Source: Aporrectodea caliginosa (Eukaryota; Annelida; Clitellata; Crassiclitellata; Lumbricidae). From it: 64,000 bases of DNA. Positions 1 to 64,000 of this stretch are shown here, one piece after another. The translations under genes and the position numbers were made by a program. Below the pieces are notes generated by a model. That model had not been told where the DNA came from and made no database searches. It saw only the letters and a program-made list of their open reading frames with translations. Location of the stretch: the NCBI GenBank assembly GCA_020284085.1, contig JACEVL010000677.1, positions 124,001 to 188,000 on the forward strand. Reading direction: 5' to 3'. The first letter of the stretch is position 1; the number at the start of each line of letters is the position of its first letter.

Positions 1-31
1 ATATATGCGTAAAAAGGTGTTTAGCATAGGG
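1..31 (-). promoter_or_regulatory. ACACCT-N22-TATA module cut by window edge
   Basis: AGGTGT (minus-strand ACACCT) lies at 15-20. The TATA box would fall before base 1. The flank matches the module at 33938-33971. Confidence 0.4.
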
Positions 32-85
32 TATTACAAAACCCTCTGCCGATGGTATTTCATACATGTATACTATACACGCATG

Positions 86-171
86 GTCAGTTATTCTGGT
101 GCGCTGAGCAATTTCAAGTGAAGGACTTGTTCAAGGTTCCTACACAGCAACCGTCTCAAGGGAGGAGGACA
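86..171 (-). repeat. tRNA-derived SINE C, truncated
   Basis: Carries the shared tail region (GTGAAGGACTTGTTCAAGG, then ACCGTCTCAAGGGAGGAGGA) but stops just before the B box. Its end abuts a hairpin repeat, so the hairpin element probably interrupted it. Confidence 0.5.
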
Positions 172-232
172 AGTTTCCACAGTTTAACGGCAGCTTATGA
201 CAACATAGGCCGTTGCTGCCGACAAAGAGTAG
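172..232 (-). repeat. H1 hairpin repeat
   Basis: AACGGC (186-191) pairs with GCCGTT (209-214) around the loop TTATGACAACATAG. It lacks the usual GGATCC tail. Confidence 0.6.
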
Positions 233-251
233 CTGTTCCGTCCTACTCGTT

Positions 252-287
252 CTTATAGGAAAGCGTAGAACATTTTAAAAGGTGTCC
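252..287 (-). promoter_or_regulatory. Module, weak TATA
   Basis: AGGTGT 280-285, 22-bp spacer, TTATA ending at 257. Confidence 0.4.
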
Positions 288-423
288 AAAATCATTAGTT
301 TTAAACATTACTGCAATAATATGAATAATTGCAGTAATAATTCGTTAACAACGTTTTGTGGTCGCTAGACACTCGCCATTTATAGAACAAACAAATGAAC
401 CAAAACACGGACACTGGCTTAGA

Positions 424-462
424 TTTATATAAAATCGTTCAACAGCATTTAAAGGAGTCTAA
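424..462 (-). promoter_or_regulatory. Module, AGGAGT variant
   Basis: AGGAGT 453-458, 22-bp spacer, TTATAT ending at 430. A sister copy with the same variant lies at 22060-22093. Confidence 0.45.
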
Positions 463-555
463 ATGTTTCTTGTTCTCGAAGATACGGCGCCATATAGATC
501 ATCACATTATTAACTTATAATAATTATAATAATAAAAATAAGGGTTATCGAGTTA

Positions 556-753
556 AAAAATAATAATAATAATAATAATAATAATAATAATAATAATAAT
601 AATAATAATAATAATAATAATAATAATAATAATAATAATAATAATAATAATAATAATAATAATAATAATAATAATAATAGTAATAATAATAATAATAATA
701 ATAATAATAATTATTATTATTATTATTCTTATTATAATAATAATAATAATAGT
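556..753. repeat. (AAT)n microsatellite
   Basis: A near-pure trinucleotide tract that inverts to ATT near 708-728. The isoleucine-rich ORF read through it is an artefact. Confidence 0.95.
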
Positions 754-766
754 AACAATAAAATAT

Positions 767-806
767 TTAGACACCTTTAAAAAGTGTGTAGTAAATGGTA
801 TATATT
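767..806 (+). promoter_or_regulatory. ACACCT-N22-TATA module, type II
   Basis: ACACCT 771-776, 22-bp spacer, TATATA 799-804. The conserved downstream block GGTCAACGTAAACGGCAGAC starts at about 871. Confidence 0.6.
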
Positions 807-1131
807 TCAATTATCACGCCGTTCAGTGGCAGTATGTACTTGGAATAGCCATTGGCTAGTAATGTAAGGTCAACGTAAACGGCAGACGTCAGATGTCGCC
901 AAACAATCATGAATTACTAATAATTATAATTAAGAATATATTTACTCACTAACTAACTTACTTACTTAATTGCAATGACAATAAGTGTTAGAATTCAGCA
1001 TTACTAACCACTCAGTATCAGTAAATGTGATCCTAATGAGAACTAGCACCTGAAAAAGCTCGTTCACCGTTGCAATGACGTTACTATTATCTATAAATAA
1101 ATAACAGATGATAATGATGACGAAGCATCAG

Positions 1132-1235
1132 ACGAAGGACTTGTTTAAGGTCCCTACACAGTAACCGTCTCAGGGAATGAGGATCGAACCCATTATCTCC
1201 GCGTTACAAGGCAACCACTTTAACTAATCGTATGC
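1132..1235 (-). repeat. tRNA-derived SINE C
   Basis: On the minus strand a B box GGTTCGATCC (1181-1190) and a decayed A-box region are visible, followed by the ACTGTGTAGGGACC tail region. Confidence 0.6.
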
Positions 1236-1339
1236 AATGTATACATATACACCCATTTAGCACCAATGTATTACGGATGATTTAATGGCGATGATAGATG
1301 ACACACCAAAACTTTTACGATATGTTAGGTTCGCCTAAC

Positions 1340-1604
1340 ACATAAATGTGATTCTCTTGTAAACCAAAATGCGGTTAGCAATTGGTATAATAAAGGATAT
1401 ACTTAACTTACTTTACTTACTTACTTACTTACTTACTTACTTACTTACTACTTACTTACTTACTCTACTTACTTACTTACTTACTTACTTACTTACTTAC
1501 TTTATTCATTTACTTACTTGCTTGCTTGCTTGCTTGCTTGCTTGCTTGCTTACTTACTTACTTACTTACTTACTTACTTACTTACTTACTTACTTACTTA
1601 CTAA
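1340..1604 (+). repeat. LINE 3' end with (CTTA)n tail
   Basis: AATGCGGTTAGCAATTGG, then AATAAAGGATATACTTAA, run into about 200 bp of (CTTA)n with a (GCTT)n patch near 1518-1550. The same 3' end and tail type closes the LINE at 15784-16690, so this is probably a severely 5'-truncated copy with an expanded tail. Confidence 0.6.
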
Positions 1605-1631
1605 CCACTACTTATCGCCTATTGAGAGCTG

Positions 1632-61403: not shown

Positions 61404-61443
61404 TTAGACACCTTAAAAAAGGATATATAAGATGCTATTTATA
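61404..61443 (+). promoter_or_regulatory. ACACCT-N22-TATA module, type II
   Basis: ACACCT 61408-61413, 22-bp spacer, TATTTA 61436-61441. An extra TATATAA lies inside the spacer at 61424-61430. Confidence 0.6.
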
Positions 61444-61569
61444 CGTCACTCGTTGGTCAGTATGCATAGTCGAACACGCAACCGGTTCATGGATGACTGG
61501 TAACTATTTTTACTTTATATCTTTTCTTTAATAAGCGGCTGTTGGTGACATTGTAAGTGTGAACATGAT

Positions 61570-61606
61570 TTTGACACCTATAGATTGATGTCATCACTGT
61601 TTAAAT
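61570..61606 (+). promoter_or_regulatory. Decayed module
   Basis: ACACCT 61574-61579 followed by TTTAAAT about 22 bp on. The paralogue at 12518-12553 has lost the hexamer. Confidence 0.3.
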
Positions 61607-61816
61607 TTCTTATAATTTTGTGTATAATAAAGCCTCGTTTGTTAGCCCTATAGTAAATACTGACTTCAGACCCACAATGTAGAGTAATTAACGGAAACTG
61701 GTAGGGTGCAGTGGCGTAGCTAAATGAATATAGCTATCGGACTTGATCGTTTTAGTCTCTGGTAAATCATCCAGAAACTAACGAGTTACAAAATCTTACG
61801 GCAGCGTAATTATAGG

Positions 61817-61853
61817 CCTATATATCTGAGGCATCAGTTACAAAGGTGTTTTG
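61817..61853 (-). promoter_or_regulatory. Module with short spacer
   Basis: AGGTGT 61844-61849, 19-bp spacer, TATATA 61819-61824. One of the few copies off register. Confidence 0.4.
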
Positions 61854-62141
61854 CGCAATCGCAAATGAGCCTTCACAATCTATCGAGTGAAGCGAACTGT
61901 TTAACGAATCAATTGAAGTCCTCGATTCGATCAGTTTAGATTAGAATGGATTTAGATTAGATCAGATTAAAGGTAAGGAATAATAAGATAAGATTAGAAA
62001 ACAATATAAAGATAAGTTAAGCTTCAGATTGGAATTAGTTTCGATCAGTTAAAGGTAAGGGGAAAACAAAATAAACAAAGATAAGATAAGATAAGTTTAT
62101 AAATTACGCATCACTAACAAACGATCATTGTTTTTAATATT

Positions 62142-62182
62142 TCAGACACCTATACAATCATGCTCAGTCAAATGCTATTTGC
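62142..62182 (+). promoter_or_regulatory. Module with 24-bp spacer
   Basis: ACACCT 62146-62151, TATTTG 62176-62181. Confidence 0.35.
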
Positions 62183-62208
62183 TTAGCATTGCCTGTAAAT
62201 TGTACTTA

Positions 62209-62316
62209 CTCAAGGATCTTTGGCTGTTGAAAGTACTGGAACGTCGATCTCAAAGAGAGGAGGACCGACCCGTATTATTCATAAGTTACAATGCGAGCAT
62301 CCTAACTTACCGGTGC
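62209..62316 (-). repeat. tRNA-derived SINE C
   Basis: GGAGGACCGACCCG in place of the B box. Head side TTAGGATGCTCGC is retained. Confidence 0.4.
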
Positions 62317-62522
62317 CTTGCAAACAACGTTGTATTAAGACAAAAACTGTAAAGTAAGATGCAATCGTTATACACTAAACACTACAAAGTAAAATCGGTG
62401 TTTACGATATATTGTTTGGTTACTATACACCAGGATAATCAACGAAACGAGTTAGATTGGATTAATCGAAGAGTCGATAACTTATTTTTGATCTCATCTC
62501 CATCAATCTCTTCCAAACACAG

Positions 62523-63046
62523 TTAACCTTCAAAAGGCCGGGGACGTTACAGAACATTTCTATGGTTTTTGCTTTTAAAAACTTGTTCCATGTGGAATAC
62601 TAATTTTGATAATTTAGGTACCTGTAGCAGGATCATTAATTTTGCGCACATTTTGAGGTAAACATCATTAGTTTTTCGTCTATGGCGTACTCAGTTTTCT
62701 TCCTGGAAGAGAAGGCATACCATTCTTTAGAGGGAATGTGGGCTTCATTGGCATACCTACATCTTTTCTTTAGAAAAAAGGAAGTGATCAAAATAAATAA
62801 TAATACGCGTAATATGCCTGAAAAATGGCTGAATGGAAGGACTCCCCTGCTGTTTTTGTCAGTAGCGTATTCATTTATCTTCCTGGAAGAGAAACAAATA
62901 TACCATTTTTTAGAGGGAATGTAGGGCTTCATTTGCATACTTAAATGTTTGTCTTTTGTTTACCGGAAGTGATCAAAATAAATAATAATACGTGTAATCT
63001 GTGTGACAACGGCTGAATACAGCATCACAACGTAAATCGATATGGG
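62523..63046 (-). mobile_element. TTAA MITE family M2, decayed copy
   Basis: Begins at TTAA 62523-62526. It matches M2 in reverse (TTAGGTACCTGTAGCAGG, CACATTTTGAGGTAAA, AGAGGGAATGTGGGCTTCAT) and keeps the internal duplication (AAAATAAATAATAATACG at 62789 and 62975). The far terminus is missing. Confidence 0.7.
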
Positions 63047-63733
63047 CAAAGGTGCTTTACATAAATATGTTTTATGTATTTCTGAGCAAAGGACGAATCC
63101 TGGAGAGGATCTGTGAGACTGGGAAGGACCAGCATTGTAGTCCCTACCATCTGGACTTTGAGGATCGGTAAGCCTTTAAACTGGGTAAGAATGGGATTGT
63201 TTTCAATAAATACGACCTTGATCAGCTTTGTGGAATTTCTGGATCCGTCCGTATGTCCGACGACATAGGTGTTAGACTAATGAAAAATTAGCACTGGTGA
63301 CTCGATGTTTTTGTATGTGAGCTTTTAATCAATCTTTAATAGGAAGCAGGTGAACTGCTTCGCTCAATTGAGGAGTTTTGATTCAAAAAGGTTGTGTTTT
63401 GGAGACATAATTGAATGCGTAGCAAAAAGAGCGTGGATGGTAAGAGAGCTGTATATCTGCTCCTGGGCGGATCCAGGAAAGGAGCTGGGAGGGACCAACA
63501 TAGTTCGTCCCATCTAAGCTTTGGGGATTGACTGGTCTCTAAACTCTTTGGGGTGATGGTTCTCAAACAAATATTGGGTGGTGACAAGTTTATCAAACAC
63601 TGATATAGTTTAGGTCTCACGACTTAAGGAGGCGCTCATTTCGTTTCTTTGGCCCTTGACCTCGCAGTGGACTAATCTCAAGTAATTCCCCCATTATGGC
63701 AGAATAATACTTGTCATAAGCTGTTGAAGCGTA

Positions 63734-63774
63734 GATATATATACCGTCAGATGAAAGCGTAGAAAAGGTGTTTT
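63734..63774 (-). promoter_or_regulatory. ACACCT-N22-TATA module, doublet left
   Basis: AGGTGT 63766-63771, 22-bp spacer, TATATATA 63736-63743. Confidence 0.65.
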
Positions 63775-63859
63775 TTGAGATCAACCGTTACTTATGGCCT
63801 CCTTTCTTCCTATAATCTAGGGATGAATTCTACAGATGTAAAAACTGTTGAATCGTAAA

Positions 63860-63899
63860 TTTATATAGCATCGATGAATGACGTAAAAAAGGGGTTTAG
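63860..63899 (-). promoter_or_regulatory. Module, AGGGGT variant, doublet right
   Basis: AGGGGT 63890-63895, 22-bp spacer, TATATA 63862-63867. Confidence 0.5.
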
Positions 63900-64000
63900 C
63901 ATCGAAATTGCACTCGTGCTCTCACCAAAACCCCAACATCTTCTATACACGGAACCAGTTCATCGCAGGACTTGTCGTTTACTTTCCAGCTTATGCTTCA

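What the first reader, a model, noticed from the sequence alone, without database searches (positions are those of the whole stretch)
1..64000. About 85 copies of an ACACCT-N22-TATA module with rigid spacing on both strands
By hand count about 31 plus-strand and 55 minus-strand copies pair ACACCT (or a one-base variant) with a TATA-like box. Roughly 76 have exactly 22 bp between the two, and most others have 19-24. Spacer sequence, flanks and unit lengths vary freely, and indels are common elsewhere, so the spacing looks selected. A PSE-like box plus TATA at fixed distance is the known layout of snRNA-type (SNAPc) promoters, and CACCTTTA loosely fits the vertebrate PSE core CACCNTNA. The inference is a large dispersed array of single-promoter small-RNA genes, analogous in layout to nematode type 1 piRNA loci. 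An ancient promoter-bearing repeat family is the main alternative.
Basis: partly seen in the sequence, partly recalled or inferred. Interest (0 to 1): 0.95.

Follow-up and report, generated by a model that had tools for sequence, protein, structure and literature searches.

The report
Tens of thousands of snRNA-type promoters
A large animal genome, probably an annelid worm's, carries tens of thousands of tiny promoter modules built like those of its own spliceosomal RNA genes and packed into clusters, which suggests an army of one-promoter small-RNA genes like those known from nematodes.

Summary
A matrix trained on another cluster of this genome finds 78 modules in the window (52 minus, 26 plus), 64 with exactly 22 bp between ACACCT and TATA. 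Genome-wide the exact pattern occurs 32,815 times against 3,049 for its reversed control; a stricter form, 4,208 against 1. In the C3 cluster information sits almost only in the two boxes. Decisive test: the genome's own snRNA genes. The array matrix's best match lies 55-59 bp before the model 5' end in 29 of 34 fetched U2, U4 and U5 upstream regions (19 of the 29 above shuffle level). Five U2 promoters pair this box with TATA in the array's register; in U6 (Pol III) TATA is 5 bp further. So ACACCTTT is this species' PSE, and the modules most resemble U2-type, Pol II, SNAPc promoters. Downstream DNA is diverse and unstructured, with a weak YRNT-like start signal; PIWI genes exist. The likeliest product is piRNA-like RNA, but no RNA evidence was available. 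COX1 looks clitellate annelid (recall).

The parts
254..285 (-). PSE-TATA module N22
428..458 (-). PSE-TATA module N21
771..802 (+). PSE-TATA module N22
3182..3212 (-). PSE-TATA module N21
6999..7030 (-). PSE-TATA module N22
7257..7288 (+). PSE-TATA module N22
9580..9611 (-). PSE-TATA module N22
10110..10141 (+). PSE-TATA module N22
10975..11006 (-). PSE-TATA module N22
11975..12006 (-). PSE-TATA module N22
12362..12393 (+). PSE-TATA module N22
12943..12974 (+). PSE-TATA module N22
14418..14449 (-). PSE-TATA module N22
14619..14650 (-). PSE-TATA module N22
17008..17039 (+). PSE-TATA module N22
17947..17978 (+). PSE-TATA module N22
19915..19946 (-). PSE-TATA module N22
20588..20619 (-). PSE-TATA module N22
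21006..21037 (+). PSE-TATA module N22
21487..21518 (+). PSE-TATA module N22
22060..22093 (-). PSE-TATA module N24
24210..24241 (-). PSE-TATA module N22
24319..24350 (-). PSE-TATA module N22
25946..25977 (+). PSE-TATA module N22
27381..27411 (-). PSE-TATA module N21
28820..28851 (+). PSE-TATA module N22
29687..29717 (+). PSE-TATA module N21
30796..30830 (-). PSE-TATA module N25
30921..30952 (-). PSE-TATA module N22
31982..32013 (-). PSE-TATA module N22
32084..32115 (-). PSE-TATA module N22
33005..33036 (-). PSE-TATA module N22
33940..33971 (-). PSE-TATA module N22
34448..34479 (+). PSE-TATA module N22
34524..34555 (+). PSE-TATA module N22
34631..34662 (+). PSE-TATA module N22
35420..35451 (-). 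PSE-TATA module N22
35922..35953 (-). PSE-TATA module N22
38337..38368 (-). PSE-TATA module N22
39805..39836 (-). PSE-TATA module N22
40028..40059 (+). PSE-TATA module N22
40009..40045 (-). PSE-TATA module N27, overlaps the module at 40028, possibly spurious
40438..40469 (-). PSE-TATA module N22
40846..40877 (-). PSE-TATA module N22
41411..41444 (-). PSE-TATA module N24
41985..42018 (+). PSE-TATA module N24
42129..42160 (+). PSE-TATA module N22
42940..42971 (+). PSE-TATA module N22
43860..43891 (-). PSE-TATA module N22
44524..44555 (+). PSE-TATA module N22
44995..45026 (-). PSE-TATA module N22
45095..45126 (-). PSE-TATA module N22
46080..46111 (+). PSE-TATA module N22
47128..47157 (+). PSE-TATA module N20
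47650..47681 (-). PSE-TATA module N22
48932..48963 (-). PSE-TATA module N22
49511..49542 (-). PSE-TATA module N22
51048..51078 (-). PSE-TATA module N21
51712..51743 (+). PSE-TATA module N22
52315..52347 (-). PSE-TATA module N23
52427..52458 (-). PSE-TATA module N22
53362..53393 (-). PSE-TATA module N22
53685..53716 (-). PSE-TATA module N22
55382..55413 (-). PSE-TATA module N22
55493..55524 (-). PSE-TATA module N22
56467..56501 (-). PSE-TATA module N25
56603..56634 (-). PSE-TATA module N22
57042..57073 (+). PSE-TATA module N22
57860..57891 (+). PSE-TATA module N22
58462..58493 (-). PSE-TATA module N22
58582..58613 (-). PSE-TATA module N22
59092..59123 (-). PSE-TATA module N22
59931..59962 (-). 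PSE-TATA module N22
61022..61053 (-). PSE-TATA module N22
61408..61439 (+). PSE-TATA module N22
61821..61849 (-). PSE-TATA module N19
63740..63771 (-). PSE-TATA module N22
63864..63895 (-). PSE-TATA module N22

Best explanation
Each module is a complete snRNA-type core promoter: a PSE (TTARACACCTTTWWAACG) that binds SNAPc, and a TATA box 22 bp after ACACCT, in the register of this genome's own dispersed U2 genes. Each would start RNA polymerase II about 54-58 bp after the first A of ACACCT and make a short, unstructured, locus-specific non-coding RNA. The modules are tens of thousands of one-promoter small-RNA genes, kept in clusters (roughly 50-500 kb in the three places looked at) that grow by local duplication, with the promoter preserved and the RNA-coding part changing fast. 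The most likely product is a PIWI-bound small RNA, as in nematode type-I (21U) piRNA genes. Shown: the modules, their number, clustering and spacing; the PSE shared with U2, U4, U5 and U6; the U2-type register; a position-fixed YRNT-like signal; lack of RNA structure; PIWI genes in the genome. Inferred: SNAPc binding, Pol II use, transcription, short RNA, PIWI loading.
For: Genome-wide excess 32,815 vs 3,049 and, strict form, 4,208 vs 1. Information almost confined to the two boxes in the C3 cluster, n=44. Matrix trained on C3 applied to the window: 86 hits vs 3 shuffled; 61 of 71 paired hits at N22. Array matrix best match at -55..-59 in 29 of 34 U2/U4/U5 upstream regions: U2 13 of 14, U4 5 of 6, U5 11 of 14; 19 of the 29 score above the 95% level of shuffled regions; six of the U2 rows are identical or near-identical sequence and one is a degenerate gene. 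U2 genes L066, L067, L068, L070 and L077 have a CACCTTTT box at -58 or -59 with TATA at N22 (L068, L070) or N24 (the other three); the usual array box TATATAAA also reads TATA at both N22 and N24. In U6 the box lies at -63 and TATA starts at N27 or later. Spacer between related copies: most mismatches, few gaps. T at +56 and +60 in 51% of 184 modules against 32% background; in the 42 from other contigs T56 p=5e-4, YRNT at 53, 56 and 57 p=0.007, 0.007, 0.02, uncorrected. No fold signal downstream (n=125). Three PIWI-clade loci, and one tested plus two presumed AGO-clade loci.
Against: No RNA data. [quoted passage not shown] Many PSE boxes have no TATA partner: 15 of 86 in the window, 68 of 156 in C3. 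The start signal is weak and split between +56 and +60; a first further set of 27 gave no clear T60 peak. Local duplications carry modules with flanks, and 53-58 of 93 C3 modules and 62-70 of 77 window modules have at least one flank match. Among alignable window copies the boxes (mismatch 0.158 and 0.190) are not clearly better kept than flanks (0.152-0.250). Capitella was reported without a massive piRNA cluster (PMC8915122, passages); earthworm TE-derived small RNAs show a ping-pong strand (PMC6085071, passages). U1 promoters could not be checked.
Confidence: 0.68

Rival explanations
1. Promoter-bearing repeat family: an old short element that happens to contain an snRNA-type promoter (for example a retroposon that captured a U2-like promoter) has spread and decayed; most copies do nothing.
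For: Flanks of modules match each other more often than random segments: C3 141 (down) and 69 (up) of 4,278 pairs vs 26-41; window 168 and 306 of 2,926 pairs vs 47-57; most modules have at least one such relative. The spacer is partly conserved in the window and, by eye, in other clusters such as C13. Box mismatch among alignable window copies is no lower than in some flank bins.
Against: In C3 almost only the two boxes carry information, and about 97% of flank pairs have no match. Between related copies the spacer changes most in sequence but rarely in length, mismatch-to-gap ratio about 24 vs 5-12 in the flanks, which neutral decay would not give. No Rfam RNA body is found in the window at gathering threshold.
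Confidence: 0.15
2. Pol III small-RNA genes: PSE plus TATA is the vertebrate type-3 Pol III layout (recall), so the modules could make Pol III transcripts.
For: TATA accompanies 71 of 86 PSE hits in the window and 88 of 156 in C3; in the nematodes compared, TATA marked only the Pol III snRNA loci (PMC6436959 passages).
Against: U6 of the same genome has TATA 5 bp further from the PSE; dispersed U2 genes have the array's register. TTTT, a Pol III stop (recall), is enriched rather than depleted just after the predicted start: in 22% of 125 modules within 25 nt against 10-14% in later 25-nt windows; TTTTT is flat at 2-5%.
Confidence: 0.12
3. Pol II snRNA-type genes for a structured or otherwise known RNA class (miRNA, snoRNA, spliced leader) rather than piRNA-like RNAs.
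For: Spliced-leader and some snoRNA genes can use snRNA-type promoters (recall); in C. elegans the piRNA-cluster factor ATTF-6 was also found at SL2, snRNA and snoRNA genes (PMC11822377 passages).
Against: No Rfam match at gathering threshold in the window and one tRNA only in 150 kb of the C3 cluster. Downstream sequence has no fold signal, and none of the 15 top-ranked 6-mers is in more than 19 of 125 modules.
Confidence: 0.08

Closest known systems
Nematode type-I (Ruby-motif, 21U) piRNA genes
   Same: Over ten thousand independently transcribed, clustered units; promoter related to the snRNA/SNAPc motif; YRNT at the start (PMC6436959 passages; PMC11262695 start of abstract).
   Different: Here the full PSE is kept together with a TATA box at fixed distance; modules lie on many contigs rather than in two domains; apparently another phylum; transcripts and PIWI loading are unproven.
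Pol II snRNA genes (U2, U4, U5) of the same genome
   Same: Same PSE, same distance to the RNA 5' end, and for five dispersed U2 genes the same TATA register.
   Different: No snRNA body was found in the window.
Plectus sambesii / P. murrayi piRNA loci (genus name from recall; the passages print P.)
   Same: The full SNAPc motif is used at piRNA promoters, nearly identical to that of snRNA promoters (PMC6436959 passages).
   Different: No TATA at Pol II loci there; nematodes; 3,082 motif sites in P. murrayi against tens of thousands here.
Annelid (Capitella, earthworm) piRNAs
   Same: PIWI proteins and about 29-31 nt piRNAs exist in annelids (PMC8915122 and PMC6085071 passages).
   Different: Described there as TE- or locus-derived; the word promoter does not occur in the Capitella main text, and the earthworm passages seen name no upstream motif.

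Membership tests
snRNA-type (SNAPc) promoter | PSE shared with the species' own snRNA genes | tested here: met
   Array matrix best match at -55..-59 in 29 of 34 U2/U4/U5 upstream regions, 19 of them above shuffle level
snRNA-type (SNAPc) promoter | PSE-TATA spacing equal to a snRNA class of the same genome | tested here: met
   U2: TATA at N22 in L068 and L070, at N24 in L066, L067 and L077; array N22 in 64 of 78
snRNA-type (SNAPc) promoter | Bound by SNAPc | not testable with these tools
   needs ChIP or in vitro binding; the SNAPC3 gene search was unanswered
Pol III type-3 promoter (U6) | PSE-TATA spacing of this genome's U6 | tested here: not met
   U6 TATA starts at N27 or later; 1 of 78 modules at N27, possibly spurious
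nematode-type autonomous piRNA genes | many thousands of clustered one-promoter units on both strands | tested here: met
   promoter modules only; transcription not shown
nematode-type autonomous piRNA genes | YRNT initiator at the expected start, 5' U | tested here: inconclusive
   enriched at +53, +56 and +57, also in 42 modules from other contigs, but weak
nematode-type autonomous piRNA genes | unstructured, diverse RNA | tested here: met
   no fold signal in three windows downstream, n=125
nematode-type autonomous piRNA genes | short capped precursors and PIWI-bound RNAs | not testable with these tools
nematode-type autonomous piRNA genes | found in a nematode | tested here: inconclusive
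   mitochondrial COX1 with an nad2-like frame before it looks clitellate annelid by recall; no database naming was available
dispersed repeat family | homology beyond the boxes among copies | tested here: inconclusive
   above random, in local families; absent from about 97% of pairs in C3

The most novel reading that the evidence does not exclude
An annelid independently evolved nematode-style piRNA genes: some 30,000-60,000 autonomous Pol II units, each driven by a TATA-containing copy of the U2-type snRNA promoter, kept in clusters and turned over by local duplication.
Probability: 0.48. Interest if true: 0.95.

Novelty: new variant of a known kind. Interest (0 to 1): 0.86.

Why it matters
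In the listings of my paper searches (open-access library, capped lists, so not exhaustive) autonomous snRNA-type small-RNA gene arrays turn up only in nematodes. The same solution in a distant phylum, with a full PSE and a TATA box, would mean that snRNA promoters can be recruited more than once to make small RNAs. It would offer a second system in which to ask how such short Pol II units are started, stopped and clustered. It also gives a ready motif for scanning any annelid genome against existing small-RNA libraries.

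Tried and rejected
Bacterial tRNA finder and Rfam on the window: nothing. Open reading frames: of 18 of at least 130 aa I scanned six with Pfam, one weak RVT_1 match below its cut-off, and by eye took most of the rest for simple repeats. Homologues of a LINE-like fragment to name the organism: 1,326 hits, no taxon names. Downstream fold and k-mer search for a known RNA class: no fold signal, no k-mer in more than 19 of 125 modules among the 15 top-ranked 6-mers. 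The first indel comparison required N22 in both copies and was biased against indels; it was replaced, which leaves the second copy free. A first start-site reading at +58 (R-N-T at +58 in 45 of 125, median position 20) was not clearly repeated in 27 further modules; the later sets show signals at both +56 and +60. For one search, 239 modules were cut to 184 by a similarity filter, and the 42 'other-contig' modules had been looked at before. Genome-wide counts at another spacing were not obtained, so the genome-wide control is the reversed pattern only. snRNA upstream regions are a selection: 14 of 45 listed U2 matches, 6 of 8 U4, 14 of 32 U5; of 17 U6 loci nine were scored.

Full report
WHAT WAS CHECKED. 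The finding claims about 85 copies of ACACCT plus a TATA box at 22 bp. Direct counting gives 40 exact copies at N22 in the window and 51 with up to one mismatch, on 0-3 exact copies per spacing outside 21-26 (one exception: 12 at N1). The peaks at N24 and N26 are by eye mostly later registers of TATATA. I trained a matrix on exact copies in a separate cluster (contig C3, 1.04-1.24 Mb). Applied to the window it gave 86 PSE hits against 3 in shuffled sequence; 71 paired with a TATA matrix, 61 of these at N22. In C3 itself 156 PSE hits stood against 10, of which 88 paired, 62 at N22; so 15 of 86 and 68 of 156 PSE hits had no TATA partner over threshold. With looser thresholds there are 78 window modules (52 minus, 26 plus), 64 at N22, and 93 in C3, 71 at N22.

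SCALE. The window is part of a 1.098-Gb eukaryotic assembly. The exact pattern occurs 32,815 times on both strands against 3,049 for the reversed pattern; a stricter pattern occurs 4,208 times against 1. Exact copies make up 84 (40 and 44) of the 171 matrix-defined modules in the two studied places, so an excess of about 30,000 exact copies suggests perhaps 60,000 modules; this extrapolation is mine. They are clustered: C3 modules run from about 1,060,555 to 1,227,600, with none in the 20 kb fetched before and the 10 kb fetched after. Listed places on C1 lie within about 51 kb, and a dense run on C11 covers its first 524 kb. Only about the first hundred places of each search were listed, so there is no full map.

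WHAT IS CONSERVED. In C3 (44 exact copies) the information sits in about -4..+13 (TTARACACCTTTWWAACG; 0 is the first A of ACACCT) and +25..+35 (CTATAWAWA). Spacer positions 17-24 have at most 0.17 bits and flanks at most about 0.3. In the window (40 copies) the spacer and about 30 bp upstream are also partly conserved, as expected of a younger local expansion. Flanks match each other more often than random segments: in C3 141 (downstream) and 69 (upstream) of 4,278 pairs against 26-41, involving 58 and 53 of 93 modules against 28-37; in the window 168 and 306 of 2,926 pairs against 47-57, involving 62 and 70 of 77 against 43-55. So local duplication carries modules, though most pairs show no flank match. 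Over 285 alignments of window modules, with no demand on the second copy's spacing, spacer positions 14-24 show the highest mismatch rate (0.344) but few gap openings (0.0144/site): a ratio of about 24 against 5-12 in the flanks. Against this: the far-upstream bin (-150..-100) has practically the same gap rate (0.0147) with mismatch 0.152, and the boxes themselves (0.158 and 0.190) are not clearly better kept than flanks (0.152-0.250) among these alignable copies, which are probably young and are not independent of one another.

THE PSE TEST. I located U6, U2, U4 and U5 genes of the genome and read upstream DNA of a selection: all 17 U6 loci, 14 of 45 U2, 6 of 8 U4, 14 of 32 U5. U2 genes L066, L068, L070 and L077 have a CACCTTTT box at exactly -58 and L067 at -59. 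TATA starts at N22 in L068 (TATATAAAGG) and L070 (TATAGAAGG), and at N24 in L066, L067 and L077 (AATATAA). L078 has a TAACCT variant with TATA at N21. Six further U2 rows (L071-L076), identical or near-identical upstream and mostly from a tandem array, have CTACCT at -58 and no TATA; L069 and L079 look like a retrocopy and a degenerate gene. U4 genes have ACACCT, ACACCC or AAACCT at -57/-58, with TATA at N25 in four of six (L082 has it at N21 and N23). Five of 14 U5 genes have ACACCTTTTTAATTG and six others a related box at -55..-58, mostly without TATA in the array register. Scoring the 34 U2, U4 and U5 upstream regions with the array matrix, the best match lies at -55..-59 in 29: U2 13 of 14, U4 5 of 6, U5 11 of 14. 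Nineteen of the 29 score above the 95% level of shuffled regions (2.6); ten do not (L071-L079 and L081). The five misses are L069, L082 (which carries ACACCC at -58 but scores better elsewhere), L086, L091 (a strong box at -123 instead) and L098. Of nine U6 loci scored, six have the best match at -63, three of them above 2.6; TATA starts 27, 29 or 31 bp after the box, and the box is often CTACCT. Hence ACACCTTT is this species' PSE. U2 (Pol II) has the array's spacing and U6 (Pol III) is 5 bp longer; I therefore assign the arrays to Pol II. That spacing sets polymerase choice is known for other lineages (recall) and was not tested here.

START SITE AND PRODUCT. U2 puts the start at +58. In 184 modules left of 239 after a similarity filter, T is enriched at +56 and +60 (51% each, background 32%), and YRNT at 53, 56 and 57 (31, 38 and 37 of 184 against about 17). 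In the 42 modules from other contigs T56 has p=5e-4, T60 p=0.02, and YRNT at 53, 56 and 57 p=0.007, 0.007 and 0.02, uncorrected. An earlier look at 27 modules from other contigs had given no clear T60 peak. The general Pol II initiator (recall) could also give such a signal, so it supports initiation more than it supports piRNA. Downstream DNA is unstructured (mean fold z -0.09, 0.06 and 0.19 in three windows, n=125; control stretches 0.08 and -0.02) and shares no dominant k-mer. Rfam at gathering threshold found nothing in the window and one tRNA in 150 kb of C3. TTTT is enriched, not avoided, in the first 25 nt (22% against 10-14% in later windows), which speaks against Pol III; TTTTT is flat.

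HOST AND PATHWAY. COX1 lies on a 15,120-bp contig, stays open under mitochondrial codes 4, 5, 9, 13 and 14, follows an nad2-like frame (recall), and by recall resembles clitellate annelids. Piwi-domain matches fall in six loci. One exon each was compared with PDB sequences for four: C852 is nearest chains named Piwi-like protein 2, C217 and C1641 nearest Piwi-like protein 1, C77 nearest argonaute-2. C16 and C114 I take for AGO from exon layout alone; whether the genes are intact was not tested. [quoted passage not shown] Capitella has 29-31 nt piRNAs and no massive cluster (PMC8915122). Earthworms have 29-30 nt 5'-U TE-derived small RNAs with a 26-27 nt ping-pong strand (PMC6085071). Listings of my searches show no report of autonomous snRNA-type piRNA promoters outside nematodes. 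Several lists were capped (one search showed 15 of 2,805, none of them with the term Ruby motif), and subscription papers and preprints are not covered.

VERDICT. That these are snRNA-type promoters I hold at about 0.85; that they drive autonomous small RNAs about 0.7; that these are PIWI RNAs about 0.5. The repeat-family reading remains possible for part of the copies.

Noticed in passing
window 3650-4294, 6212-6604, 15891-16831, 54506-55084: Fragments of LINE-like reverse-transcriptase frames (family by recall; one weak RVT_1 match); the first has a 97% identical relative on a 25.7-kb ENA contig.
   Followed up: partly
window 559-765, 1400-1602, 25590-25866, 26756-26932 and others: Long, 92-100% regular tri-, tetra- and pentanucleotide microsatellites, up to about 69 units.
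   Followed up: no
window 44935-45130: A 100-bp tandem pair in which each copy holds a module next to tRNA-SINE-like sequence (recall of the look of such SINEs).
   Followed up: no
G000:C70:3435453-3436790: Second COX1 match with the same score as the mitochondrial contig: a nuclear copy or an assembly artefact.
   Followed up: no
G000:C370:955560-993739 and C2506: U2 tandem array, unit about 2.25 kb, whose promoter keeps a PSE-like CTACCT at -58 but has no TATA, unlike dispersed U2 genes.
   Followed up: partly
C3 cluster, 1.04-1.24 Mb: 68 of 156 PSE hits have no TATA partner over threshold, against 10 PSE hits in shuffled sequence: perhaps U5-like TATA-less promoters.
   Followed up: no
L017 4913-4983: A tRNA gene inside the C3 cluster.
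   Followed up: no
window, about 30 bp upstream of many minus-strand modules: A further conserved stretch (GGAACAAACGAGGCC..GTTGATGCTAA) in the window's modules, not seen in C3; a local subfamily mark or a distal element.
   Followed up: partly
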